DNA from: Bryobacterales bacterium
GTDB lineage: Bacteria; Acidobacteriota; Terriglobia; Bryobacterales; Bryobacteraceae
DNA: 46,684 nucleotides
Direction: 5' to 3'
NCBI GenBank assembly: GCA_025463005.1
Contig: JAOAPR010000081.1
Coordinates: 1 to 46,684 of the forward strand
Positions within the stretch are counted from its first letter, which is position 1. Each line of letters starts with the position of its first letter. The translations under genes and the position numbers were made by a program. Under the pieces are notes generated by a model. The model was given only the letters and a program-made list of their open reading frames with translations. It searched no databases and was not told where the DNA came from. This document shows, piece after piece, positions 8,895 to 40,202 of the stretch.

Positions 8895-10489
8895 TCCGGT
8901 TGCCTTACCACGCAGGCGCCTTCACCAGGAGGGGGATCGATTGCCGGGTCGAGCGCGACGACGGCTCCGCTCGGAGACTGGTAGACAACGCTTAAGGCGT
9001 GGCTCGCGAGGAACTGGCGATCGTCGGGCGCGTAGAACACGTATGCTCGTTGCCCGGGCGGATATCGGTCGTAATGCGGAAACCGAGGAAACGTTTCGCG
9101 ACCTGAAGCGACCCGGTAATAATTCATGCTGCCATCGTAGTGCCAGTTCACGGCCACGTCTTTCAGGCCGCAGGCATGGTTGTAATAGGCCAGGACCGCA
9201 TAGATCTTGTCAGTGTCCTGGTCGAATTTCCACTCCTTGAAGTAATTCAGTCGTAGACACAGCAGGAAATACGATCCCAGGACGACCATTAGAATCGTGA
9301 GACCCCGGCGGGACACTTCGCCCGCGCGCGTGGGAATGGGAACCGCCGCGAGGATGCCCAGGAACAGAGTGCTCAGAAAAACGATGTAGATTCCTGTTCG
9401 ATCCTTGGGCAGCAGCATTCCGTCTAGGCGGAAAACTATCGAGTGCATGATCAAGGCGGCCGCGACCGCGACTATCGGAACAGCCCCGAAAACCAGGAGC
9501 CACCCGCTCCGTGCATTCCGTAGCGAGCGCCAGTTGATCAATAGCAGCATCACTCGCCACGCCGCGAAAGCTCCGAACATCGGCAGAATGATTCCGGGAA
9601 CATCAACGAATAGCAGATCGCTCAATGACGGGGTCAATTCGGGGAAGGAGGCATCGTAGAGACTCACGAAGGTTTCCGCCAGGTGCGTCGCCCCGTAGGT
9701 CAGGGGTTCGGTCCAATGCAGGAGCGCCGAACCGGCCAGAGTGCCAGCCACGAGCAGGCCTGGTAAGAAGCAGGCGATGGCTAATTCGAGGCGGGTCTTT
9801 ATTGACTCGCGCGAAACGGAGCGCGGCGCGATCGGATTCTGGTTTTCCGTGTTGGCGGGCGTGGCGCCCTTCGCGCTTCCGAGTGATCCGCCTCCGGATG
9901 CCCAGAGATACAGCATTACGATGGTGGCGGCATCCACCAACGCAAACGAGAAATTGCTCACAAACGATAGAGCGACGCAGACCGACGCCAATCCGCAGGT
10001 AAGCGTGAGCGACCTGGAGTTTGCCGCGGTTTGGGGATTTTTCGCATAGGCCACCAGGCAAATTGCAGACAGCAGAAAACCTGATGCCAGACCGTAGCCG
10101 CGGGCCGCGACCAGGAAATCGAACGTAAAAGGGTTAAACACCAGGCAGACAAATAGAAACAGCCGCAAGAGAAAATCCTGATCGAGCAGGGTAGAAATGA
10201 AATAAGAGGCCAGGATGAAGATAGCGGCTCCGATCAGGGCGCCGGATCGAACTACAAGCGGCGACGTGCCAAAGACTCTCGTGAAAATCCAGGCCAGCAT
10301 CGAATTGAGCACGTGATTGTTGGCGTGCCCTGTCCAGTATGCAGGGTGCGTCGGGAGAACGAAGTTCACGTAGGTGACAGCTTCGTCCATAGTTATGGCC
10401 TGGACGTGCGCGCGGACGATGGCCCATGCCATCGCAAAGGCTGCGAGGCCGAGCAGGATTCGGCGCTGGCCGGTCGCACCAACTCTCAC
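8882..10489 (-). CDS. polytopic membrane protein, GT-C (family 39-like) glycosyltransferase
   Basis: The product is about 535 residues with roughly ten hydrophobic segments. After the first span the motif ITMDEAVTYVNFVLP appears; the acidic pair in this first periplasmic loop is the hallmark of dolichyl- or polyprenyl-phosphate-sugar dependent GT-C transferases. A soluble C-terminal part (about 450-535) includes NYYRVASGRETFPRFPHYDR. I chose the GTG at 10489 because it is preceded by an AGG and directly precedes the basic residues before the first span. The longer frame to 10564 runs into the leader of the divergent gene. Substrate unknown. Confidence 0.7.
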   Translation of the reverse strand: MRVGATGQRRILLGLAAFAMAWAIVRAHVQAITMDEAVTYVNFVLPTHPAYWTGHANNHVLNSMLAWIFTRVFGTSPLVVRSGALIGAAIFILASYFISTLLDQDFLLRLFLFVCLVFNPFTFDFLVAARGYGLASGFLLSAICLVAYAKNPQTAANSRSLTLTCGLASVCVALSFVSNFSFALVDAATIVMLYLWASGGGSLGSAKGATPANTENQNPIAPRSVSRESIKTRLELAIACFLPGLLVAGTLAGSALLHWTEPLTYGATHLAETFVSLYDASFPELTPSLSDLLFVDVPGIILPMFGAFAAWRVMLLLINWRSLRNARSGWLLVFGAVPIVAVAAALIMHSIVFRLDGMLLPKDRTGIYIVFLSTLFLGILAAVPIPTRAGEVSRRGLTILMVVLGSYFLLCLRLNYFKEWKFDQDTDKIYAVLAYYNHACGLKDVAVNWHYDGSMNYYRVASGRETFPRFPHYDRYPPGQRAYVFYAPDDRQFLASHALSVVYQSPSGAVVALDPAIDPPPGEGACVVRQPDQSR

Positions 10490-10548
10490 ACAACAACCTA
10501 GAGCTAGCCCAGTCTCGCACGATTCGAAACAGGCTAGAGTGGAAGAGG

Positions 10549-11106
10549 ATGATCCAAAAAACAATTTTGTGCTTAATTGTAGTGGCTGGATTCGCGTCCG
10601 CGCAGCCTTTCGGCGCCGGTTTGAAAGTCGGCGTGCCCGCGACCGACGCGTTCAAGGTTCTGCCCGCTCCGACCTTGGGGGTGTTCACAGGCGAGTCGCA
10701 TCGTTACACTATTGGTCCATACGTTGAGCTGAGGCTGCCCGCGAGGATGGCCGTCGAAGTGGATGCGCTATATCGCAGCTGTGATTTTCAAAGCGCCGGT
10801 GTGGGCGCGTCGGCCAGCTCGTGGGAATTTCCAGTGCTGATCAAGCACCGCTTCCCCGTGCCTTTAGTGAAGCCGTATTTCGATGCGGGCGTGAGCTTCA
10901 GCCGGCTCTCGGATATCAAGCTCTCCTCACTCAATCATCGGTCGAATTATGGAATTGTGGTGGGCGGAGGGGTCGAGTTGAACCTGTTCCTGATCAAGGT
11001 CTCGCCTGAGATTCGCTATACAGGCTGGGCTTTTCGGAATTTCGACGGCGCGCAGGTCCAGTCCAGGCGCAACCAGCTCGCAGTGTTGGTCGGGTTCGGC
11101 TTTTAG
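10549..11106 (+). CDS. outer-membrane beta-barrel protein
   Basis: The 185-residue protein starts at the ATG at 10549, preceded by GGAAGAGG. A signal peptide (MIQKTILCLIVVAGFASAQP) precedes alternating hydrophobic/polar strands such as GPYVELRLPARMAVEVDALY, LVKPYFDAGVSFSRLSDI and NYGIVVGGGVELNLFLIKVS, and the chain ends in LAVLVGFGF. A terminal Phe is the usual outer-membrane assembly signal. It fits a small eight-stranded OmpW- or OMP_b-brl-type barrel. Its stop overlaps the end of the convergent ABC transporter gene by four bases. Confidence 0.8.
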   Translation: MIQKTILCLIVVAGFASAQPFGAGLKVGVPATDAFKVLPAPTLGVFTGESHRYTIGPYVELRLPARMAVEVDALYRSCDFQSAGVGASASSWEFPVLIKHRFPVPLVKPYFDAGVSFSRLSDIKLSSLNHRSNYGIVVGGGVELNLFLIKVSPEIRYTGWAFRNFDGAQVQSRRNQLAVLVGFGF

Positions 11107-13055
11107 CGGCCGCGCATTAACCGCATCGCTTCCGCCATCGCAGCAGTTTCTCGAGCCTGGCCGCCGCCGGCTTCCTCTGGAACGGTGTCGCCCTCGCCGG
11201 GCGCAAGGAAGAGATTCGCTTCCACGCCGTGCTGCCGCGTATAGAGATCCCAATAGCGGCCTTGCTGCGCATACAGCGTTTCGTGGGTGCCGCGCTCGAC
11301 GATCCGCCCATTCTCGACCACCAGAATCTGATCCGCGCGCCTGATAGTGGACAGCCGGTGGGCGATCACGAAGGTGGTGCGTCCCTGCATCAGGTATCGC
11401 AGACCTTCCTGGATGAGCGCCTCTGATTCCGAATCCAGGCTGGACGTGGCTTCGTCCAGAATCAGAATCCGCGGATCCGCCAGAATCGCGCGCGCGATCG
11501 ACACGCGTTGCCGCTGGCCGCCCGAGAGTTTGACCCCACGTTCGCCGACCACAGTATCGTATTGCTTCTCGAATTTTTCGGCGAACTCGTCCACGCGGGC
11601 GATGCGGCAGGCTTCCAGGATCTGTTCCCTGGTCGCACCCGGACGGGCAAACGCGATGTTTTCTTCGATGGTGCCATCGAACAGGAAAGTATCCTGGAGT
11701 ACCACGCCCAATTGGGTCCGATAGCTGTCCAGGCGTACCGTGGAGAGGTCGAAACCGTCAACGGTAATCATCCCCGAAGTGGGGGTATGAAACGCCGCCA
11801 CCAGGCTAATGATGGTCGATTTACCCGATCCGGACGGCCCAACCAGCGCCGTCACCTTGCCCGGTTCGGCGTGAAAATCCACATCGAACAGCACGGGTTT
11901 GCCTGCTTCATATGAAAAGCTGACATCCTTGAATTCCACCGCGCCCTGAATGTTTCCGATGGCGACCGTCCGGCCTGGCTCGCGATCTTCGGGCCGCTCT
12001 TCCAGCACTTCGCGCGTCCGATCGAGCCCCGCGAACGCCTCCGTTAACTGCGTCCCGATTCCGACCGCCTGGAACACCGGGGCGATCAGGAACGCCAGAA
12101 ACGTAGTGAACATCACGAACTGTCCCAGTGAGATGTGGTCGGCGGCAATCTGCCGGGCGCCCACGTACATGATCGCGGCGCTGACGATTCCCATCAGCAC
12201 GGTGGAGGAAAGACCCATCACCGACATCATCGTCAGAGAGCGGAATACGTTGTCCAGCAGCTTTTGGACGCCTCTGCCGAAGACGTCCGCTTCACGCTCT
12301 TCCGCGTGATAACCCTTCACGACCCGCACACCACCGAGCGATTCGGTCAGTCTTCCGGTCACCTCTGCCGTGATCTTCCCGCGTTCCCGGAAGACCGGCC
12401 GGATTTTCGTAAACGCCTTGCTGAGAGCGAACGCGAATATACCCACCGACACGGCGGTGACCGCCGTCATGCTCGGACTGATGGCCAGCAGAAACCCTAA
12501 CGAGATCACCGCGGTCAACAGCCCGCCGACAAAATCGACAAGTCCGGTGCCGATCAGGTTGCGCACGCCTTCCACGTCATTCATGATTCGCGATACGAGC
12601 ACGCCACTCTTGTTGGTGTCGTAGTAGGCGACGGGCAGCAGACCGATGTGCCGCTGGACCTTCTGGCGCAGCTCGGCGATCAGGCGCTGTCCGGCTTTGG
12701 AGAGGATCTGGGTGAGCGAAAACGACGTAATGCCCTGAATCAACGTCGCGCCCAAGATGCCCAGGACCAGCGGGGTCAGCAACGCTAACTGCTGCTTGCC
12801 AATGACGTTGTCGATCAGGTATCGCGTGGAAATGGGGAGTACCAGGCCGCTGAGGCGGTTCACGATCATCAGCAAAAAGCCGAGTGCCAGAATCTTGCGA
12901 CGCGGCAGAACCAGCTCGCGGAGCTGCGGCCACACGTCACGCAGGCCAGGCTGACGTTTCTTGCCGCCCGTACTGGTGGGGCCGCTAACCTCGCCCGATC
13001 GGCGCGGCCGGTCGCCGTGCCCCATCCCCGGCATTCCTATTCCTCTTGCTGCCAT
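11103..13055 (-). CDS. MsbA-like ABC exporter (fused membrane and ATPase domains)
   Basis: The 650-residue half-transporter has six predicted spans (residues about 55-340) followed by an ATP-binding cassette. Visible motifs are Walker A GPSGSGKST, Q-loop LGVVLQDTFLFDGTIEENI, signature LSGGQRQR, Walker B ILILDEATSSLD and the H-loop AHRLST. This layout belongs to type IV exporters such as MsbA or multidrug exporters, which act as homodimers in the inner membrane. The N terminus carries about 45 extra basic, Gly/Pro-rich residues. Substrate is unknown; lipid or drug export is the usual assignment. It diverges from the DUF72 gene with only 24 bases between start codons, so the promoters must overlap. 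Confidence 0.93.
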   Translation of the reverse strand: MAARGIGMPGMGHGDRPRRSGEVSGPTSTGGKKRQPGLRDVWPQLRELVLPRRKILALGFLLMIVNRLSGLVLPISTRYLIDNVIGKQQLALLTPLVLGILGATLIQGITSFSLTQILSKAGQRLIAELRQKVQRHIGLLPVAYYDTNKSGVLVSRIMNDVEGVRNLIGTGLVDFVGGLLTAVISLGFLLAISPSMTAVTAVSVGIFAFALSKAFTKIRPVFRERGKITAEVTGRLTESLGGVRVVKGYHAEEREADVFGRGVQKLLDNVFRSLTMMSVMGLSSTVLMGIVSAAIMYVGARQIAADHISLGQFVMFTTFLAFLIAPVFQAVGIGTQLTEAFAGLDRTREVLEERPEDREPGRTVAIGNIQGAVEFKDVSFSYEAGKPVLFDVDFHAEPGKVTALVGPSGSGKSTIISLVAAFHTPTSGMITVDGFDLSTVRLDSYRTQLGVVLQDTFLFDGTIEENIAFARPGATREQILEACRIARVDEFAEKFEKQYDTVVGERGVKLSGGQRQRVSIARAILADPRILILDEATSSLDSESEALIQEGLRYLMQGRTTFVIAHRLSTIRRADQILVVENGRIVERGTHETLYAQQGRYWDLYTRQHGVEANLFLAPGEGDTVPEEAGGGQARETAAMAEAMRLMRGR

Positions 13056-13079
13056 TCATTTCAGTGTAGCCTGCGATAG

Positions 13080-13787
13080 ATGGCTACTCTTTTCGCAGGC
13101 ACTTCAGGATTCGCCTACCCCAGCTGGAAACCGGACTTTTATCCGCCCAAGCTTCCTGCCAAGGACTTTCTCAAGCACTATGCAACCCGGCTGAATTCCG
13201 TGGAAATCAACTACACATTCCGCCAGTTGCCAAAGACAACAACCCTAGAGAATTGGATTAATGCGACGCCGGAAAGATTCAGCTTTTCCTGCAAAGCGCA
13301 CCAGCGGATCACGCACATCATGCGGTTGCGGGAATCCGAGTTTACGGGCGTGTTCTTCAAGGCGATCGATCCGCTGCGGGCTTCACGTCGTTTAGGGCCT
13401 GTGTTATTTCAACTGGCGCCCAATCTAAAGGCGGATCTGGCCACACTGACAGCCTTCGTCGAGAAACTTCCCCGGGACATCCGGTGCGCTTTCGAGTTCC
13501 GGAACAATTCCTGGCTTATCGACGACGTCTATCGCCTGTTCGAAAAATACGGGATCGCGCTGTGCCTGGCGGAATCGGACAAATTCGAGGTTCCTGAGGT
13601 GGTGACGGCGGGTTTCGTCTACGTCCGGCTGCGGAAAGAGGACTATTCACTGGAGGAACGCGCCGTAATCGCCGACCGAGTGCGGGGGATGTTGGCTGGA
13701 GGCCGCGATGTTTATGTGTTCTTCAAGCATGAAGATACTCCGGCCGGGGCGGTCTATGCGGAGGAGTTGCTGAGGGCTGCCAAGTGA
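13080..13787 (+). CDS. DUF72 family protein
   Basis: The 235-residue protein has the DUF72 (YecE-like) signatures: FAGTSGFAYPSWKPDFYPPK at the N terminus, YATRLNSVEINYTFRQLP, FSFSCKAHQRITH, GPVLFQLAPNLK, IRCAFEFRNNSWL and the C-terminal YVFFKHEDTPAGAVYAEEL. The family forms a TIM barrel of unproven function; an endonuclease or metal-dependent role has been suggested for relatives. The length is normal. A GTGA overlap at its stop carries the start of the decayed hicA reading frame. Confidence 0.88.
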   Translation: MATLFAGTSGFAYPSWKPDFYPPKLPAKDFLKHYATRLNSVEINYTFRQLPKTTTLENWINATPERFSFSCKAHQRITHIMRLRESEFTGVFFKAIDPLRASRRLGPVLFQLAPNLKADLATLTAFVEKLPRDIRCAFEFRNNSWLIDDVYRLFEKYGIALCLAESDKFEVPEVVTAGFVYVRLRKEDYSLEERAVIADRVRGMLAGGRDVYVFFKHEDTPAGAVYAEELLRAAK

Positions 13788-29849: not shown

Positions 29850-29863
29850 TTAAGGTCGAGAGA

Positions 29864-29908
29864 TGGAGCTGGCGGAGGGGCTTGAACCCCCGACCCTCTG
29901 ATTACAAA
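29864..29908 (-). repeat. displaced 3' end of tRNA-Thr(UGU): left attachment site of island 1
   Basis: These 45 bases match 40127-40171, the 3' part of the intact tRNA-Thr(UGU), at 43 positions; the two differences (GC for AA at 29880-29881) fall in the T loop. The match runs from the CCA end to the anticodon loop and stops abruptly. This is the usual footprint of a tyrosine-integrase element that enters a tRNA 3' end and restores the gene with its own copy. Confidence 0.88.
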
Positions 29909-30407: not shown

Positions 30408-30779
30408 ATGAGCAATCAACCCGACGACACAGTTGTTAGGCTTGGACCCGCTGAGCCGATGGCGACATTCGAGGACCTCCTTTCGCTGTCGCTGGAAATG
30501 ATCGACCTTCAGCGAGCCAGGATTGCACGAGCGGCGCAAGAAGAGATGGCCGAGGGCGCATTGAGGAAGGATCTCTCAGTTGAACTGAAGCGGCTGAACG
30601 GCATGATGACGACATACAACGATCTTCTGAATTCCCCGCAGTCAAGGATTGCGCCGCAACCACCGGAGGGACCAAGCTTGATGGAGAACCTCCTGAACAA
30701 ACTTCAGGAGTCGCAGGATAAACGAGCGCGAGGCGGGCGAAAGAAGCAAATCTGCTCGTCCTCAGAAGCTTGCCCCTAG
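30408..30779 (+). CDS. hypothetical coiled-coil protein
   Basis: The 123-residue protein is mostly helical and charged: SLSLEMIDLQRARIARAAQE, LRKDLSVELKRLNGMMTTYN and LMENLLNKLQESQDKRARGG, ending with a basic segment GRKKQICSSSEACP. No family was recognised. It could be a small accessory or DNA-binding protein of the element. Its stop overlaps the stop of the convergent Mrr-like gene by four bases. Codon use and isolation leave moderate doubt. Confidence 0.5.
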   Translation: MSNQPDDTVVRLGPAEPMATFEDLLSLSLEMIDLQRARIARAAQEEMAEGALRKDLSVELKRLNGMMTTYNDLLNSPQSRIAPQPPEGPSLMENLLNKLQESQDKRARGGRKKQICSSSEACP

Positions 30780-31342
30780 CTAGTTGTATTCAGGAAATCC
30801 AGGATTGCATGAACCTGCTCGTCGTCGATCGTGTGACAGGAGTAGCCATTCTCAAGAGGCGTCAAACGCTGGCCCGCAAAGCGCGGAAGATTGGCCCATG
30901 GCGGTGGCACGACCGAATCGGAGTAAAGCGACCTCGTTTCGTAGAGCCAGCGTCCTTCAACAACCGTAATCGTCGCGATTCCGCGCGCCCGCGCGAGTTT
31001 GATTGCGCCCTCCTGAAAACCGGATGTTGAGAAAAGCATGCCTTTGTGCGCGCCGGTGTCGCGAAGCTTGCTCTCAAGTGCGAGAACCTCGTCGCGAGCG
31101 ACAGGGCGGCCCTGATGTTTACACTCCGCGAGGACTACCAACAGCGCGCCCGAAAAGAGTGTCAAGCGGACGACGACATCGACCGCATACTCACCTCCTT
31201 GACCAGCCACTTTCTCTTGATGGGTAGCTTTCCAATCTTCGGCATGCATGGCGCCGCGAGTAAGCCAGTCCCGAACCTGCAACTCGAAATCTTTCGGCGT
31301 TATCTCCACCGGGTCAGACGGATTCAATGGATCGAGCCGCAT
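30776..31342 (-). CDS. Mrr-like PD-(D/E)XK restriction endonuclease
   Basis: The 188-residue protein begins with a helix typical of Mrr_cat (TPKDFELQVRDWLTRGAMHA) and continues GQGGEYAVDVVVRLTLFSGA, LLVVLAECKHQGRPVARDEV and KGMLFSTSGFQEGAIKLARA. D55 and E73-x-K75 form the PD-(D/E)XK core, and STSGFQEGA is the usual Mrr C-terminal signature. Relatives cut modified DNA (type IV restriction) or act as stand-alone nucleases. No methyltransferase is adjacent, so a modification-dependent or resident-defence role is likely. It is island 1 cargo. Confidence 0.85.
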   Translation of the reverse strand: MRLDPLNPSDPVEITPKDFELQVRDWLTRGAMHAEDWKATHQEKVAGQGGEYAVDVVVRLTLFSGALLVVLAECKHQGRPVARDEVLALESKLRDTGAHKGMLFSTSGFQEGAIKLARARGIATITVVEGRWLYETRSLYSDSVVPPPWANLPRFAGQRLTPLENGYSCHTIDDEQVHAILDFLNTTS

Positions 31343-35136: not shown

Positions 35137-35394
35137 ATGAGCGAGGCCGTGGACATAATTACCCAAGCAATTCAGCGGGCAGTCGAATCCGGCGTCCGCA
35201 AGGCCCTAAACGTTTACGAGGCAACGAACCGGCGACTCCTTTCCGTGAAAGAAGCGGCCACGTATCTTTCATTAAGCGAACGCGAATTGTATAACATGAT
35301 GGCCAATCACCAGCTGCGAGCGGTACGGCATGGGCGCCGTACAATGTTCGACATCCGCGACCTAGATACTTGGATCGAGCGGAACAAGGTGTAA
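35137..35394 (+). CDS. excisionase-like HTH_17 DNA-binding protein
   Basis: The 85-residue protein has a helical N terminus (VDIITQAIQRAVESGVRKAL) and then a winged-helix domain of excisionase/AlpA type: RRLLSVKEAATYLSLSEREL, YNMMANHQLRAVRHGRRTMF and DIRDLDTWIERNK. Such proteins direct integrases towards excision. The gene sits ten bases before the tyrosine integrase, in the usual xis-int order. Confidence 0.85.
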   Translation: MSEAVDIITQAIQRAVESGVRKALNVYEATNRRLLSVKEAATYLSLSERELYNMMANHQLRAVRHGRRTMFDIRDLDTWIERNKV

Positions 35395-35404
35395 ACTCGC
35401 TTTT

Positions 35405-36520
35405 ATGCGTCGAACAGTACCGAGCGGGCGGATCTTTCGGCAGGCATACCGTGACCGCCACGGAAAGCGGCGTCTGACACGGGTTTGGTATTTAAAGTAC
35501 TACGTGAAAGGGAAGCCGGTGGTAGTCTCATCGAAGACCGAGGATAAGACCGCCGCGATCACGCAGCTAACGCAACGTGTCGCTGAAGCCTCAAGAAACT
35601 CGCAGACCGTGGGCCTGCACGAGAGAATACGAATGGATCAACTGTTCGACCTTCTTCTCGCATGGTACAGACTGAAAGAGCGACGGAGCACTTACGACGT
35701 CGAGCGGAAGATCGAGAAGCACCTACGCCCGTGGTTCGGAAAACTGAAGCCGCAAGCAGTGGGGGACGCTGAGCGGACGCGTTACATTCAGTTTCGACGT
35801 GCGCAAAAAAGACCTCCGACAAACGCCACGATTAATCGAGAACTGGCTTATGTGCGGCGTGCAATGAAATTGGGAGCGCAGCACGATCCGCCCTTGGTCT
35901 TGCATGTTCCGCGCTTCGAGATGCTACCGGAAGCCGATGCTCGTGAGGGGACACTTAGTCACGATCAATACCGCGCGGTTAGAGACTTGCTTCCGAACTA
36001 CGCACGGGTCGCGCTGGTTGTCGCCTATCACACAGGTGCTCGCAAGGGTGAACTGTGTCAGATCCGTAAGGATCGGATCGACCTCAAGGCGCGCAGGATT
36101 GAACTGCCCGGGCGAACCACGAAAACGAAACGCCCGCGATTCCTGCCGATCTATGGGGATATGGGACCCGAACTCGACATGGCCATATCCAGCGGGAACA
36201 AGGGATGCCCATTCCTCATCCAGCGTGACGGGGAGCCAGTGAAGGATTGGGAGAAAGCGTGGGTGACAGCCTGCAAAGCGGCTGGCCTGCCCGGTACCCT
36301 CTTTCACGATCTTCGAAGGACTGCACTTACTCACATGATTGAGGCTGGACTTTCAGAGAAGGAAGCGATGGAAATCAGTGGGCACCGCACACGGAGTGTC
36401 TTTGACCGATACCACATCGTGAGCGAGCGCCGGTTGCGCGAGATGGCTGAAAAGCTAGAAGTCCACCTGAAGACAAAGGAGAAACCCCTCCGGCGGATCG
36501 ATCCCACAATGGTCCACTAG
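35405..36520 (+). CDS. tyrosine recombinase (island 1 integrase)
   Basis: The 371-residue protein has an N-terminal arm-binding region (IFRQAYRDRHGKRRLTRVWY), a core-binding SAM-like domain (MDQLFDLLLAWYRLKERRST) and a complete catalytic domain. Catalytic residues are R213 in YHTGARKGEL, K242 in TTKTKR, H301 and R304 in LFHDLRRTALTHMIEAGLS, H327 in ISGHRTRSVFDRYH, and nucleophile Y336. All are intact, so the enzyme should be active. It most likely catalysed integration into tRNA-Thr(UGU) between 29864 and 40127. Unlike many such integrases, its gene is central in the element rather than next to an att site. Confidence 0.95.
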   Translation: MRRTVPSGRIFRQAYRDRHGKRRLTRVWYLKYYVKGKPVVVSSKTEDKTAAITQLTQRVAEASRNSQTVGLHERIRMDQLFDLLLAWYRLKERRSTYDVERKIEKHLRPWFGKLKPQAVGDAERTRYIQFRRAQKRPPTNATINRELAYVRRAMKLGAQHDPPLVLHVPRFEMLPEADAREGTLSHDQYRAVRDLLPNYARVALVVAYHTGARKGELCQIRKDRIDLKARRIELPGRTTKTKRPRFLPIYGDMGPELDMAISSGNKGCPFLIQRDGEPVKDWEKAWVTACKAAGLPGTLFHDLRRTALTHMIEAGLSEKEAMEISGHRTRSVFDRYHIVSERRLREMAEKLEVHLKTKEKPLRRIDPTMVH

Positions 36521-36666: not shown

Positions 36667-37641
36667 ATGAATCCACACTCTTTCCACAGCGTAATCAACA
36701 TCCTATCAACTGTCGATAGTTCCCACAGCCAACTACCTGAAATGCAGGGCTCTTACAATTATGGTTCTCACCCGCTACCAGTCATGGCGAAACGAGCCCG
36801 TTCGAACAACACACAGATTCTTCTTTTTCCGAACGGCGAATCAGTGTCCCCACTCGATCCCGGAGCCTCCGAAAAGTCTGCGTCAGGCAGACGGGATCTA
36901 GCGGGTAGTTCGTCGATCTCAAGTTGCGAGGTAGTACTTTCAGGCTCATTTCGGCGGGACCTTGAAGGACTCCGAACCGTTCACGAGGAATTGACCGATC
37001 TAGGTTGCAAGATCCTCTCACCGACGCAGGTGGAACCCTCTCGGGAAGTCGATGGATTCGTGTTCATGAAGGGTGAGGAAGTCGAGAGTCCCGAACACAT
37101 TGAGTTGAAGCACCTCGACGCTATACAAAAGGCGGCTTTCGTCTGGTTGCACGCGCCGGACGGGTATGTGGGGTTGAGCGCCGCGTTAGAAGTGGGATTC
37201 GCTCACGCACAGGGTGTCCCGGTATTTTGCCGAACGCCCCTGACCGACGTAACTTTGAAATCCTTCGTGCGCGAAACGAATAGCGTCGCAGCCGTCGTGA
37301 GCTCCGCAAAGGAACACAAGCTTCCTGTTCCCACGCCAAACCTGAGCACTTTTCAACGGTACTACAAGCGAGTCGCTAGCCAGCGCGGATACGAGCGAGA
37401 AACCGCTCAGAACTGTCTTCTGCTGATGGTAGAGGAGGTAGGGGAACTAGCGCGGGCGATTCGCAAACGAGAGAAGTTGGTTCGCCATGGGCCCGCGCGC
37501 GGCAATTCAGGCGAATCGCAGGAACTTGCCGACGTGTTTCTTTACATCGTCCATATGGCTAACATCCTGGATCTTGACTTGGGCTCGGCTGTCCGCGACA
37601 AAGAACTAATGAACATAACGAAGTTCATCCGTTCTCGCTGA
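36667..37641 (+). CDS. nucleoside 2-deoxyribosyltransferase-like / MazG-like fusion protein
   Basis: The 324-residue protein joins two nucleotide-acting domains. Residues about 87-205 resemble the nucleoside 2-deoxyribosyltransferase fold: CEVVLSGSFRRDLEGLRTVH, IQKAAFVWLHAPDGYVGLSA and ALEVGFAHAQGVPVFCRTPL, with E175 in the position of the catalytic Glu. Residues about 228-320 are MazG-like: TAQNCLLLMVEEVGELARAI with the EExxE metal motif (256-260) and QELADVFLYIVHMANILDLD with E286 and D289. The first 86 residues are low-complexity and may be partly untranslated; an ATG at 36784 is an alternative start. The inferred activity is breakdown of nucleotides at the glycosidic bond and/or the phosphates. 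The AAA+ gene follows after three bases. Confidence 0.75.
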   Translation: MNPHSFHSVINILSTVDSSHSQLPEMQGSYNYGSHPLPVMAKRARSNNTQILLFPNGESVSPLDPGASEKSASGRRDLAGSSSISSCEVVLSGSFRRDLEGLRTVHEELTDLGCKILSPTQVEPSREVDGFVFMKGEEVESPEHIELKHLDAIQKAAFVWLHAPDGYVGLSAALEVGFAHAQGVPVFCRTPLTDVTLKSFVRETNSVAAVVSSAKEHKLPVPTPNLSTFQRYYKRVASQRGYERETAQNCLLLMVEEVGELARAIRKREKLVRHGPARGNSGESQELADVFLYIVHMANILDLDLGSAVRDKELMNITKFIRSR

Positions 37642-37644
37642 TCC

Positions 37645-40044
37645 ATGGACTTCAACGAGCTCACGGAAGAACGTCGTAGGGTTCGCGATCTTTGCCGGAA
37701 GCATGTCACTAGTTTGACTGCATTCAAGTTTCCTAAGGGAGCGAGCTTCGCGCTGTTCGCAGACGAGAAGAGAGGCTACACAGGGGAACTAAGGCATCTT
37801 ACTTCTACGGCAACATGTATTGAATCCCTCCGCGACTCCCACACGACGTGCACGCCTGAGGGAGCTTTGGACGAAATCGCCGAGAGTCTCGGAGTTGAGA
37901 CTAAGAATCTGAGGCGATCTGCGGACTCTGTGCGGCGAGTATCGGACGCTCTGGTTCGAGCATTCTATCGGGGCGCCGCGAAGCGTACTGACTGGGTGTC
38001 TGAAGGCTCAGCTCCAGTGTATTGTGCGAGTCGAGCCTTGCCACTGTTTCTGGATGGAACCACACGATGGACGAATAGGCACGCAAACCTGGTTAAACGT
38101 ATATACCGACAGCTGCACGGGGATTCGCAGCGGTTCGGGATCGGTGAGCAGAAGGAACGTCATCGGGCTGGAAATGGCGATGCGATGGCTTGGTACCCCG
38201 AGAACGCGTATCACACTTACTGGGGCCTTCGCGTGCACTCGGCGATTCAGAGCAGATATCGCACGGAGGCTGAGCACGCTCTCGACTTAAATCTTGGACA
38301 CATGAGCGCCGGAATGCGTTTATGGGCTCGGACCAAATTGACTGAAGAGGTTGCATTGCACTGGGCGCAGAGCGCGACTCTTGATTCAGACCAATTGGTG
38401 TGGGCACTAACCGCCCTTATTGAGTTTGGTGACGATGCCTCTTCCAATCTAAGAGATCAAGATTTAATTCGCAAGGCATTCGAAGCTCTCGGCAGCACAC
38501 AAGAACAGGTAGGTACCTGGCGCCACTATCAACCATTGTTCGTGTACAGCAATGTAGGAAATGCTTACTGCTACGTATATGAGAGCTTCACCTATTTATT
38601 GAAGGCCGTTCTTGTGAAGTTCGAAGCGCAGGAATTTCTGGAAGAGATCATGCGCAAGTTCGTTGATCGCCTTCGCAGATTGCGGGAGTATGCCGAGATG
38701 ACGCAGGTGCAGGTAGGAGAGGACCGCGATTCGGTTTCATGGTCTTCCGGGCACAGACCTGGCGATTCGAAGCCTGAGGGATGGGCAACTGCGAGTGTCT
38801 TTTCCTTCTTGCAGGCATACCGGCGCCTACTAGGCGTGCTGGCGCGCCGTGATTCGCTTCGGGCTTTGCCAGGAGGTGGGTTGCTCCGAGTTCCAGATCC
38901 GCTCAAGTCCCTGAAGGAACGCGGGGATACCTGGTCTACAGCTGGGGGAACAACAGTCGCTGACGATCTGATAACACTATTTGTGAATCCAGTTCGGATG
39001 GGCAGAGGCCAGGACTTTTCCGAACCGGACGATCAACCGATTGAAGAATGGCAAGCTCGTTCAGCTATTTTGTTCGGTCCTCCTGGAGCGAGCAAAACAA
39101 CCTTGGCTCGGTTGGTGGCTCGAGTGCTCGGGTGGAAGTACGTCGAGCTTCATTCCAGCCATTTCGTTGCGGAGGGTATCCAAGCGATTCAGAGCACCGC
39201 AGATCGAATTTTCCGCTACTTGATGGAGCTGGATCATGCGGTGGTTCTGTTTGATGAACCCGACGAGTTGGTTAGGGAGAGAGATGACTCATCGGACGCA
39301 TTTGGTCGTTTCTTGACGACCAGTATGCTTCCGAAACTTGCCGAGCTATGGAAGCAGCAGCGTATCATCTATTTCATCGCCACGAACCACGTTAGGTATT
39401 TCGATGCGGCTATTATCCGGAGCGAAAGATTCGATTTGCTTGCGCTAACACCTCCGCCGTCGTTCGCCAGGAAGCGGGGAGAACTGAAGAAGCGTCTCCA
39501 GATACTAACAGGGCGCGACGTCAATATCCGCGTGAGCAGGGAACAGATCGAAGCGAGCCTTGCACGCCTACGACCTCATTCGGACAAAGTGAAAGCGCAG
39601 ATGAATCTATCGGCCGAAACGGAATTGCCAGCCGAAACGGAACTACCAATTGCCAATCAACTTGCCAAATTTGTCCTTATTCGTTGGGACCAGATCGACG
39701 AACTTGCAGTTCAATTGGAGCGGCTAATTCCTAAGCGGGGTTCAATCACGGTTGATCCTGAATTGTTGACCAGCGCACTGCAGAGGGTCGTGGATCATAG
39801 ATTGGGCCGTTTGAAGACCTACTTGGACTATATGAGCGACGCCGAGCAGGCCCGCCGGGACTTCCAGCGGAAGCCGGTCTACGAGGTGAGGAACTTCTCC
39901 GGCACTAGTTTGCCACGAGGAGTTAGGCGTTCAGGCGAGAACCTCTGGCTAAAATGTGAATCTGGAGTCTGTCCGAGAAAGGTTGGAAAGTACGATGTTC
40001 TGCAAACAAACCTTCCTGGAGTGGTAGACCTAGACCCTGATTGA
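37645..40044 (+). CDS. large AAA+ ATPase paired with the NDT-MazG fusion
   Basis: The 799-residue protein has a long, mainly helical N-terminal region (1-470) that I do not recognise. It contains YPENAYHTYWGLRVHSAIQS and PEGWATASVFSFLQAYRRLL, whose spacing recalls alpha/alpha-toroid folds. A single AAA+ module follows: Walker A AILFGPPGASKTTLARLVAR (GPPGASKTT, 478-486), Walker B VVLFDEPDE (533-541), sensor-1-like FIATNHV and an arginine-rich RSERFDLLAL. Walker A has ASK in place of the common TGK. A short duplicated SAETELPAETELP stretch lies near residue 655. It is translated three bases after the fusion protein, so the two very likely act together, perhaps as sensor or effector-gating ATPase. 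Confidence 0.8.
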   Translation: MDFNELTEERRRVRDLCRKHVTSLTAFKFPKGASFALFADEKRGYTGELRHLTSTATCIESLRDSHTTCTPEGALDEIAESLGVETKNLRRSADSVRRVSDALVRAFYRGAAKRTDWVSEGSAPVYCASRALPLFLDGTTRWTNRHANLVKRIYRQLHGDSQRFGIGEQKERHRAGNGDAMAWYPENAYHTYWGLRVHSAIQSRYRTEAEHALDLNLGHMSAGMRLWARTKLTEEVALHWAQSATLDSDQLVWALTALIEFGDDASSNLRDQDLIRKAFEALGSTQEQVGTWRHYQPLFVYSNVGNAYCYVYESFTYLLKAVLVKFEAQEFLEEIMRKFVDRLRRLREYAEMTQVQVGEDRDSVSWSSGHRPGDSKPEGWATASVFSFLQAYRRLLGVLARRDSLRALPGGGLLRVPDPLKSLKERGDTWSTAGGTTVADDLITLFVNPVRMGRGQDFSEPDDQPIEEWQARSAILFGPPGASKTTLARLVARVLGWKYVELHSSHFVAEGIQAIQSTADRIFRYLMELDHAVVLFDEPDELVRERDDSSDAFGRFLTTSMLPKLAELWKQQRIIYFIATNHVRYFDAAIIRSERFDLLALTPPPSFARKRGELKKRLQILTGRDVNIRVSREQIEASLARLRPHSDKVKAQMNLSAETELPAETELPIANQLAKFVLIRWDQIDELAVQLERLIPKRGSITVDPELLTSALQRVVDHRLGRLKTYLDYMSDAEQARRDFQRKPVYEVRNFSGTSLPRGVRRSGENLWLKCESGVCPRKVGKYDVLQTNLPGVVDLDPD

Positions 40045-40104: not shown

Positions 40105-40126
40105 ACCCTCGGAAACGTCAAAAACA

Positions 40127-40202
40127 TGGAGCTGGCGGAGGGAATTGAACCCCCGACCCTCTGATTACAAATCAGATGCTCTACCAACTGAGCTACGCCA
40201 GC
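40127..40202 (-). tRNA. tRNA-Thr(UGU)
   Basis: This is a 76-base tRNA on the minus strand. The acceptor pairs GCTGGCG with CGCCAGC, discriminator T, and CCA is encoded. The anticodon loop TTTGTAA presents TGT. The D arm is TAGCTCAGTTGGTAGAGC. The 3' 45 bases are the right core repeat of island 1. Its 5' end lies eight bases from the displaced 3' end of tRNA-Gly, so it was once directly downstream of that tRNA. Confidence 0.95.

What the first reader, a model, noticed from the sequence alone, without database searches (positions are those of the whole stretch)
36667..40044. NDT-MazG fusion plus 800-residue AAA+ ATPase: candidate undescribed defence operon
Two genes three bases apart lie in an integrative element. 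The first joins a nucleoside 2-deoxyribosyltransferase-like domain (SGSF, APDGY, ALEVGFAHAQG) to a MazG-like pyrophosphohydrolase (EEVGEL, ELADVF). The second has about 470 unrecognised helical residues and one AAA+ module (GPPGASKTT, VVLFDEPDE). Both enzyme folds attack nucleotides, and an ATPase partner is common in systems that sense infection. Depletion of (deoxy)nucleotides on phage attack, gated by the ATPase, is a reasonable hypothesis. I do not know a named system with this architecture.
Basis: partly seen in the sequence, partly recalled or inferred. Interest (0 to 1): 0.88.

Follow-up and report, generated by a model that had tools for sequence, protein, structure and literature searches.

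The report
Mobile nucleotide N-glycosidase–AAA+ ATPase operon
A small mobile element in a soil acidobacterium carries an unnamed gene pair, an enzyme predicted to break down nucleotides and a molecular motor; relatives usually sit beside DNA glycosylases, which suggests a system that strips abnormal bases from nucleotides and DNA.

Summary
36667-37641 encodes a nucleoside-deoxyribosyltransferase (NDT)/DNPH1-like domain fused to MazG; 37645-40044 encodes an AAA+ ATPase whose N-terminal half weakly resembles the terpene-cyclase toroid. The pair is cargo of a 10.3-kb element bounded by a 46-bp repeat of the tRNA-Thr end, which also carries an Mrr-like nuclease. In 7 of 7 loci with readable upstream sequence (window included) an NDT-like gene directly precedes this ATPase. 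It is rare (3 of 297 acidobacterial genomes, the window's own included); viral and phage searches found none. The new finding is a third partner: 6 of the 7 loci have a DNA glycosylase beside or one small ORF from the pair, AlkA-like in five (one a remnant at an assembly gap), AlkC-like in one. The window is the exception: it alone has MazG. Of six plasmid records matching the NDT domain, five place it with UDG, Nudix or RadA genes. I favour clearance of abnormal bases (MazG and the NDT-like N-glycosidase on the pool, a glycosylase on DNA) over bulk dNTP depletion. Defence is plausible but untested; genotoxin resistance is a serious alternative. I found no named system with this architecture. 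Activity, substrate and the ATPase's role are inferred.

The parts
36667..37641 (+). NDT/DNPH1-like N-glycosidase domain (about residues 85-215) fused to a MazG domain (about 226-320)
   Evidence: Pfam MazG E 1.5e-6; fold search led by NDT and DNPH1 structures
36922..37344 (+). NDT-like domain as matched by the family profile; putative nucleophile Glu175 at 37189-37191
   Evidence: E 1.3e-60; E175 invariant in A8; Glu in 13 of 14 family members aligned
37402..37593 (+). MazG domain with E257/E260 and E286/D289 (ExxE...ExxD)
   Evidence: Pfam residues 246-309; aligned with dCTP pyrophosphatase 1 and 2q73; residues checked
37645..40044 (+). ATPase: helical N-terminal region (1 to about 430) and one AAA+ module
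   Evidence: AAA E 1.6e-18 at residues 475-598
37645..38991 (+). N-terminal region of the ATPase with a QW-like motif, weakly similar to terpene cyclases (possible alpha/alpha toroid)
   Evidence: profile A9 against PDB: squalene-hopene cyclase E 0.0084, MstE 0.026; the model was too poor to confirm
29863..29908 (.). left attachment repeat
   Evidence: 46 bp, 95.7% identical to 40126-40171
40126..40171 (.). right attachment repeat, overlapping tRNA-Thr
   Evidence: tRNA-Thr(tgt) at 40127-40202, minus strand
35405..36520 (+). tyrosine integrase of the element
   Evidence: Phage_integrase E 1.2e-17; phrog_1 integrase
35137..35394 (+). HTH_17 DNA-binding protein (excisionase-like by position)
   Evidence: E 2.4e-14
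30776..31342 (-). Mrr-like restriction endonuclease, another cargo gene of the element
   Evidence: Mrr_cat E 2e-11; PADLOC PDC-S02 9.8e-7, type IV REase 8.7e-4

Best explanation
The pair is the mobile core of a system that clears abnormal (modified or damaged) bases. Shown: an NDT/DNPH1-like gene and this AAA+ gene are a conserved unit; most relatives add a DNA glycosylase of an alkyl-base family, and this copy adds MazG. Inferred chemistry: MazG turns an abnormal dNTP into the dNMP; the NDT-like enzyme breaks its N-glycosidic bond, giving free base and deoxyribose 5-phosphate so that salvage cannot restore it; in sister loci the glycosylase removes the same base from DNA. Inferred control: the AAA+ motor, through its toroid-like N-terminal region, senses the condition or remodels and loads the enzymes, roughly as RdrA stimulates RdrB in RADAR. 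Purpose, inferred: protection from base-modified phages or from base-modifying genotoxins. I put the chemistry at about 0.45 and the anti-phage purpose at about 0.3.
For: An NDT-like gene directly precedes this ATPase in 7 of 7 loci with upstream sequence, window included. Six of those 7 have a DNA glycosylase close by: AlkA-like after the ATPase in L016, L019, L021 and L038 copy A, with a remnant in L022 beside an assembly gap; AlkC-like upstream in L015/L018, one small ORF away (Pfam DNA_alkylation 1.8e-6; AlkC structure 5vhv E 2.4e-16). Two glycosylase families of different fold but overlapping alkyl-base activity (fold and activity recalled) suggest selection for the activity. In a second set, all 6 plasmid records that matched the L021 NDT, the NDT gene follows a UDG-superfamily gene (2), is fused to Nudix (1), precedes Nudix (1), follows radA by 8 bases (1) or precedes a Ppx-GppA-like gene (1). 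The nearest solved MazG relatives are 2q73 and dCTP pyrophosphatase 1, with the motif acids aligned. The nearest folds to the NDT domain are led by NDT and by DNPH1, a pool-sanitising dNMP N-hydrolase (PMC10603095, passages). The genome has another AlkA-like gene, 34% identical, among genes that look like ruvC and yebC by eye.
Against: The window has no AlkA-like or AlkC-like ORF near the pair or anywhere in the 46.7 kb searched, and MazG occurs only here among the loci searched. L020 shows no glycosylase downstream; its upstream side is cut by the contig end, so over all 8 loci the count is 6 of 8. By a weak alignment to an NDT structure the catalytic Asp is His in this family: His in 10 of 14 members, Asp in none; the Tyr of the DNPH1 triad was not tested. 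Activity is therefore not assured. The AlkC neighbour was noticed after the fact. An AAA+ protein has no known place in ordinary pool sanitation. Pool sanitation does not by itself explain mobility or rarity. NDT domains have been proposed as abortive-infection toxins that remove bases from DNA (PMC3710099, passages), which is another reading of the same fold.
Confidence: 0.45

Rival explanations
1. Abortive-infection nucleotide depletion: the AAA+ protein detects infection and unleashes NDT-MazG on the normal dNTP pool, stopping phage replication, as RADAR does by deamination.
For: MazG and an N-glycosidase in series would destroy dNTPs irreversibly; the element also carries an Mrr-like nuclease; rare and scattered; RADAR couples an AAA+ protein to a mononucleotide enzyme (PMC9994260, passages); MazG is among unvalidated predicted defence domains (PMC13092281, passages).
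Against: A DNA glycosylase is the usual partner (6 of 7 loci) and does not fit pool depletion; MazG is missing from the other loci searched.
Confidence: 0.22
2. Toxin-like reading: the NDT-like domain acts on another target, such as NAD, a signalling nucleotide or bases in DNA itself, and the AAA+ protein gates that activity.
For: NDT domains fused to AbiJ N-terminal domains were proposed to act on DNA as base-removing toxins (PMC3710099, passages); the catalytic Asp of true NDTs is not conserved; one relative fuses the domain to Nudix plus an NrtR winged helix, a family tied to NAD control (the tie is recalled); another fuses it to a region weakly matching the 8xMP membrane family, just under its cut-off (28.0 bits against 30). 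I recall, from no call, that the NDT-like effector of a retron degrades NAD.
Against: DNA glycosylase and MazG partners point to deoxynucleotides; top structural matches are nucleoside and dNMP enzymes.
Confidence: 0.12
3. DNA hypermodification: the NDT and glycosylase exchange rather than remove bases, installing a modified base in DNA.
For: NDT enzymes are transferases (recalled); another base-modifying domain, aGPT-Pplase, is among predicted defence domains (PMC13092281, passages).
Against: The HhH-GPD partners align to AlkA-type hydrolases including the putative catalytic Asp; I saw no base-synthesis gene in the loci read, though only selected neighbours were scanned.
Confidence: 0.06

Closest known systems
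RADAR (RdrA AAA+ ATPase and RdrB deaminase)
   Same: Adjacent genes for an AAA+ ATPase and an enzyme for mononucleotides (PMC9994260, passages)
   Different: No deaminase domain here; a fused N-glycosidase-like plus MazG domain instead; no function shown
Human sanitation enzymes DCTPP1, DNPH1 and SMUG1
   Same: A MazG-type dNTP pyrophosphatase, a dNMP N-hydrolase fold and, in sister loci, a DNA glycosylase: the same three levels
   Different: Human enzymes have no dedicated AAA+ partner that I know of; the window copy lacks the glycosylase; SMUG1 is of another glycosylase family; the DNPH1 acid/base Asp appears to be His here
Brig1-type DNA glycosylase defence
   Same: A DNA glycosylase protecting bacteria from phage with modified bases (PMC11078745, start of abstract and passages)
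   Different: 'deoxyribosyl' does not occur in that paper and 'AAA' only in oligonucleotides; the glycosylases here are AlkA- or AlkC-like and untested
IetAS (AAA+ IetA and protease IetS)
   Same: IetA models are the best PADLOC matches of the AAA core (E 3.9e-11)
   Different: 31.6 bits against a cut-off of 510 in NCBIfam; no protease found among the element proteins scanned
AlkZ-type genotoxin self-resistance glycosylases
   Same: DNA glycosylase in accessory or biosynthetic contexts (PMC9040887, abstract); two Streptomyces relatives of the NDT sit beside a UDG gene and biosynthetic genes
   Different: Different glycosylase families; no toxin cluster seen in the window element

Membership tests
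RADAR | adenosine deaminase RdrB gene | tested here: not met
   no deaminase among Pfam hits of either protein at E up to 1
RADAR | AAA+ ATPase encoded next to a mononucleotide enzyme | tested here: inconclusive
   adjacency conserved; that the enzyme acts on mononucleotides is inferred from fold
IetAS | full-length IetA | tested here: not met
   31.6 bits against 510; only the AAA core matches
IetAS | IetS protease neighbour | tested here: not met
   no protease among the window element proteins scanned; not every ORF was scanned
Nucleoside 2-deoxyribosyltransferase / DNPH1 superfamily | Pfam PF05014 gathering score | tested here: not met
   13.2 bits against 28.8; one distant relative reaches 28.2
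Nucleoside 2-deoxyribosyltransferase / DNPH1 superfamily | fold | tested here: met
   47 of the 50 best matches shown, probability mostly 1.00, best E 1.2e-3
Nucleoside 2-deoxyribosyltransferase / DNPH1 superfamily | nucleophilic Glu | tested here: met
   E175; Glu in 13 of 14 aligned members, Asp in one
Nucleoside 2-deoxyribosyltransferase / DNPH1 superfamily | acid/base Asp | tested here: not met
   His in 10 of 14, Asp in none; placed by a weak alignment to 6evs
MazG | Pfam score and ExxE...ExxD motif | tested here: met
   28.8 bits against 22; motif aligned with DCTPP1
alpha/alpha toroid (terpene cyclase fold) | fold of the ATPase N-terminal region | tested here: inconclusive
   profile hits E 0.008-0.034, variants of two proteins; model pLDDT 47, so no structural test
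Retron with NDT effector | reverse transcriptase | tested here: not met
   no reverse transcriptase among the element proteins scanned; not every ORF was scanned
AlkA-type DNA glycosylase (third gene of relatives) | HhH-GPD domain and putative catalytic Asp | tested here: met
   4 of 4 scanned above cut-off; Asp aligned and invariant; no copy in the window
Anti-phage defence system | protection from phage | not testable with these tools
   needs plating assays

The most novel reading that the evidence does not exclude
A mobile bacterial immune system that recognises abnormal phage bases and strips them at every level: MazG on the triphosphate, an NDT-like N-glycosidase on the monophosphate, and an interchangeable AlkA- or AlkC-type glycosylase on the phage DNA, coordinated by a new AAA+ family whose N-terminal sensor is a terpene-cyclase-like toroid.
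Probability: 0.15. Interest if true: 0.87.

Novelty: categorically new. Interest (0 to 1): 0.62.

Why it matters
If true, one accessory operon couples nucleotide-pool cleaning to base excision in DNA under a dedicated AAA+ motor, a combination I found in no named system. It would link phage defence or antibiotic self-resistance to a logic known from human DCTPP1, DNPH1 and SMUG1, and would give a testable role to an undescribed ATPase family. The component families are known; the assembled system and the ATPase N-terminal region are what is new. The label 'categorically new' means that each named system I tested failed at least one defining feature, not that a new function has been shown.

Tried and rejected
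Structure: the AlphaFold model of the ATPase (6 rows) was poor (mean pLDDT 47.2, pTM 0.41); the 50 Foldseek hits shown are AAA+ proteins and reflect the AAA core. The toroid reading rests on a weak profile match. The pdb_via library was not available.

Virus origin: not supported. No relatives in viral contigs with A3, A6, A9 or the window NDT-MazG protein (pattern scans of limited reach), nor in phage records with the L015 ATPase region or the L021 NDT.

IetAS: rejected; only the AAA core matches. G505 (L036/L037), a kinase-AAA protein by eye, was dropped as an AAA match. One search matched 32 plasmid records; I followed only Parabacteroides. The first NDT search had 9 of 297 genomes at E 0.001; five of these are weak matches (E 1e-5 to 2.5e-4), mostly to the MazG part, and were not followed.

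The Parabacteroides locus (ThyX, AAA, HIT, PRA-PH, DHFR) is a distant relative of the ATPase without an NDT gene and is not counted among the loci. A search for more of its kind found 0 of 112 genomes, which the tool itself calls uninformative. Searches used an alignment that included Walker A, so generic AAA candidates may have crowded out weak true ones.

Limits: L019 (titled Betaproteobacteria, 7.8 kb) and L020 (titled Bacteroidetes, 3.8 kb) are short MAG contigs and could be mis-binned, so spread beyond Acidobacteriota is not secure. The neighbours of the relatives were judged by eye and by Pfam on selected genes, not with PADLOC. Housekeeping names (ruvA, mnmE, ruvC, yebC, dnaE) are by eye. 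PMC4678834 is not held. That the architecture is not in print rests on nine searches and passages in PMC13092281, PMC11078745, PMC13160076, PMC12839542, PMC10853773, PMC3710099 and PMC9503650; the two 'toroid' papers mean rings around DNA. Most subscription papers are missing from the library, and supplements could not be read.
Full report
What is there. The window lies in an acidobacterial genome (inferred: a genome in its phylum draw is the record titled Acidobacteria gp7). Two ORFs, 36667-37641 and 37645-40044, are three bases apart. The first has a MazG domain above Pfam's cut-off and an NDT-like domain below it; the second has one AAA module and only marginal hits before residue 470.

The element. 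A 46-bp stretch at the tRNA-Thr end (40126-40171) recurs at 29863-29908 with 95.7% identity. Between the repeats lie a tyrosine integrase beside an HTH_17 protein, a serine recombinase, HTH proteins, an Mrr-like nuclease and the pair. This is an integrative element of about 10.3 kb with the pair at its tRNA end.

Conservation. In the 297-genome acidobacterial draw centred on the window, the ATPase N-terminal part matched 3 genomes and the NDT profile matched 4 at E 1e-5. All 3 ATPase genomes are among the 4 and have the genes adjacent. The hypergeometric probability is 9e-7; without G000, the starting point, it is 7e-5. The genome-contig scan gave 5 loci, of which L018 is the same locus as L015. 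Counting distinct loci with readable upstream sequence (window, L015/L018, L016, L019, L021, L038 copy A, L022), 7 of 7 have the NDT gene directly before the ATPase. L020 begins 151 bases before its ATPase and cannot tell. Other samples: 1 of 398 genomes in the phylum of L019 and 2 of 296 in that of L020, one of the latter a generic AAA match; in each the true match is the centre genome itself. A second acidobacterial search, centred on G299, returned 3 of 297: G299 and two genomes that agree with G257 and G286 in size, contig and position.

The third gene. After the ATPase, overlapping or abutting it, L016, L019, L021 and L038 copy A carry a gene of about 207 aa with an HhH-GPD domain, closest to DNA-3-methyladenine glycosylases, with the putative catalytic Asp aligned. 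L022 keeps the C-terminal 62 residues of the same gene beside an assembly gap (profile E 5.6e-37). L015/L018 has no such gene, but upstream on the same strand it has a protein whose best structural relative is AlkC (E 2.4e-16 over 104 residues); one small ORF lies between, and its stop overlaps the NDT start codon. So 6 of 7 loci have a glycosylase of an alkyl-base family close by. A check with the glycosylase profile and the AlkC-like protein found neither in the window nor in L020, so over the 8 ATPase loci the count is 6 of 8. The genome of the window has another AlkA-like gene elsewhere, 34% identical. MazG was found only in the window among the loci searched. Between L016 and L021 amino-acid identity is 0.65-0.69 and dN 0.22-0.28 for the three genes, with dS 2.2, saturated and 1.5: all three look to be under purifying selection. 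L038 copy A is a mosaic: its ATPase pieces resemble the window's (38% and 48%), while its NDT and glycosylase resemble L021's (67% and 75%). Its ATPase frame is broken.

Other contexts of the NDT domain. A plasmid search with the L021 NDT found 6 records; I read the region of each. Two Streptomyces place it directly after a UDG-superfamily glycosylase in a cluster with biosynthetic genes. One Streptomyces fuses it to Nudix and an NrtR winged helix. Vibrio has a Nudix gene next to it (the NDT-like gene itself is annotated as a pyrophosphohydrolase). Miltoncostaea has it 8 bases after a gene annotated radA. Nostoc has a Ppx-GppA-like neighbour. Thus 5 of 6 involve DNA repair or Nudix genes; the two UDG records are close relatives (72% identical NDTs). 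One more acidobacterial copy (L017) is fused to a region weakly matching a membrane family and has no such neighbour that I saw.

Chemistry inferred. MazG enzymes give dNMP plus pyrophosphate (established family activity). DNPH1 hydrolyses a dNMP to base and deoxyribose phosphate (PMC10603095, passages). In series they would destroy a dNTP beyond salvage. The nearest solved MazG relatives include dCTP pyrophosphatase 1. AlkA and AlkC excise alkylated bases from DNA (recalled). The common substrate is therefore probably an abnormal base in nucleotide and DNA form. Against this, the acid/base Asp of the NDT fold appears to be His here, so catalysis is unproven; and NDT domains have been proposed as abortive-infection toxins acting on DNA (PMC3710099, passages).

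The ATPase. A profile of the N-terminal region against PDB sequences gave terpene cyclases as the first eight distinct sequences (variants of two proteins: squalene-hopene cyclase E 0.0084, MstE 0.026-0.034), through QW motifs and, for MstE, over 110 residues. This is suggestive only. The AAA core resembles spastin, Vps4 and p97. A distant relative in Parabacteroides lies between a ThyX-like gene and HIT and PRA-PH genes, again nucleotide enzymes.

Purpose. Mobility, rarity and an Mrr-like nuclease in the same element favour defence; the Streptomyces UDG-NDT pairs among biosynthetic genes favour genotoxin resistance, for which glycosylases are known (PMC9040887, abstract). Both would use the same chemistry. 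RADAR shows that an AAA+ protein can act with a mononucleotide enzyme in defence (PMC9994260, passages). DefensePredictor lists MazG and other nucleotide-modifying domains as unvalidated predicted defence domains (PMC13092281, passages). Nine paper searches, and passages from the papers that looked nearest, showed no system with NDT, AAA+ and a DNA glycosylase.

Noticed in passing
window 30776-31342: Mrr-like restriction endonuclease inside the same integrative element, a second possible defence gene.
   Followed up: partly
L038:1209-4882 and 10120-13290: One Bryobacterales contig carries two NDT-AAA-glycosylase units on either side of a dnaE-like gene (named by eye); in one the ATPase frame is broken.
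   Followed up: partly
L023:2070-7356: Parabacteroides distasonis: ThyX-like, distant relative of the ATPase, HIT, PRA-PH and DHFR genes in a row.
   Followed up: partly
L043:3788-5381 and L044:3785-5372: Streptomyces: UDG-superfamily glycosylase followed by an NDT-family gene among biosynthetic genes.
   Followed up: partly
L041:4965-6104: Streptomyces NDT-like domain fused to Nudix and an NrtR winged helix.
   Followed up: no
L017:8887-9885: NDT-like domain fused to a region weakly matching the 8xMP membrane family, just under its cut-off.
   Followed up: no
L022:3183-3665: A second NDT-like ORF (PF05014 E 1.9e-9) just after the glycosylase remnant.
   Followed up: no
L021:6488-7660: Weak DUF5824 match (E 1.2e-4, under cut-off, 30 residues; 3 of 7 members) in the ATPase N-terminal region.
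   Followed up: no
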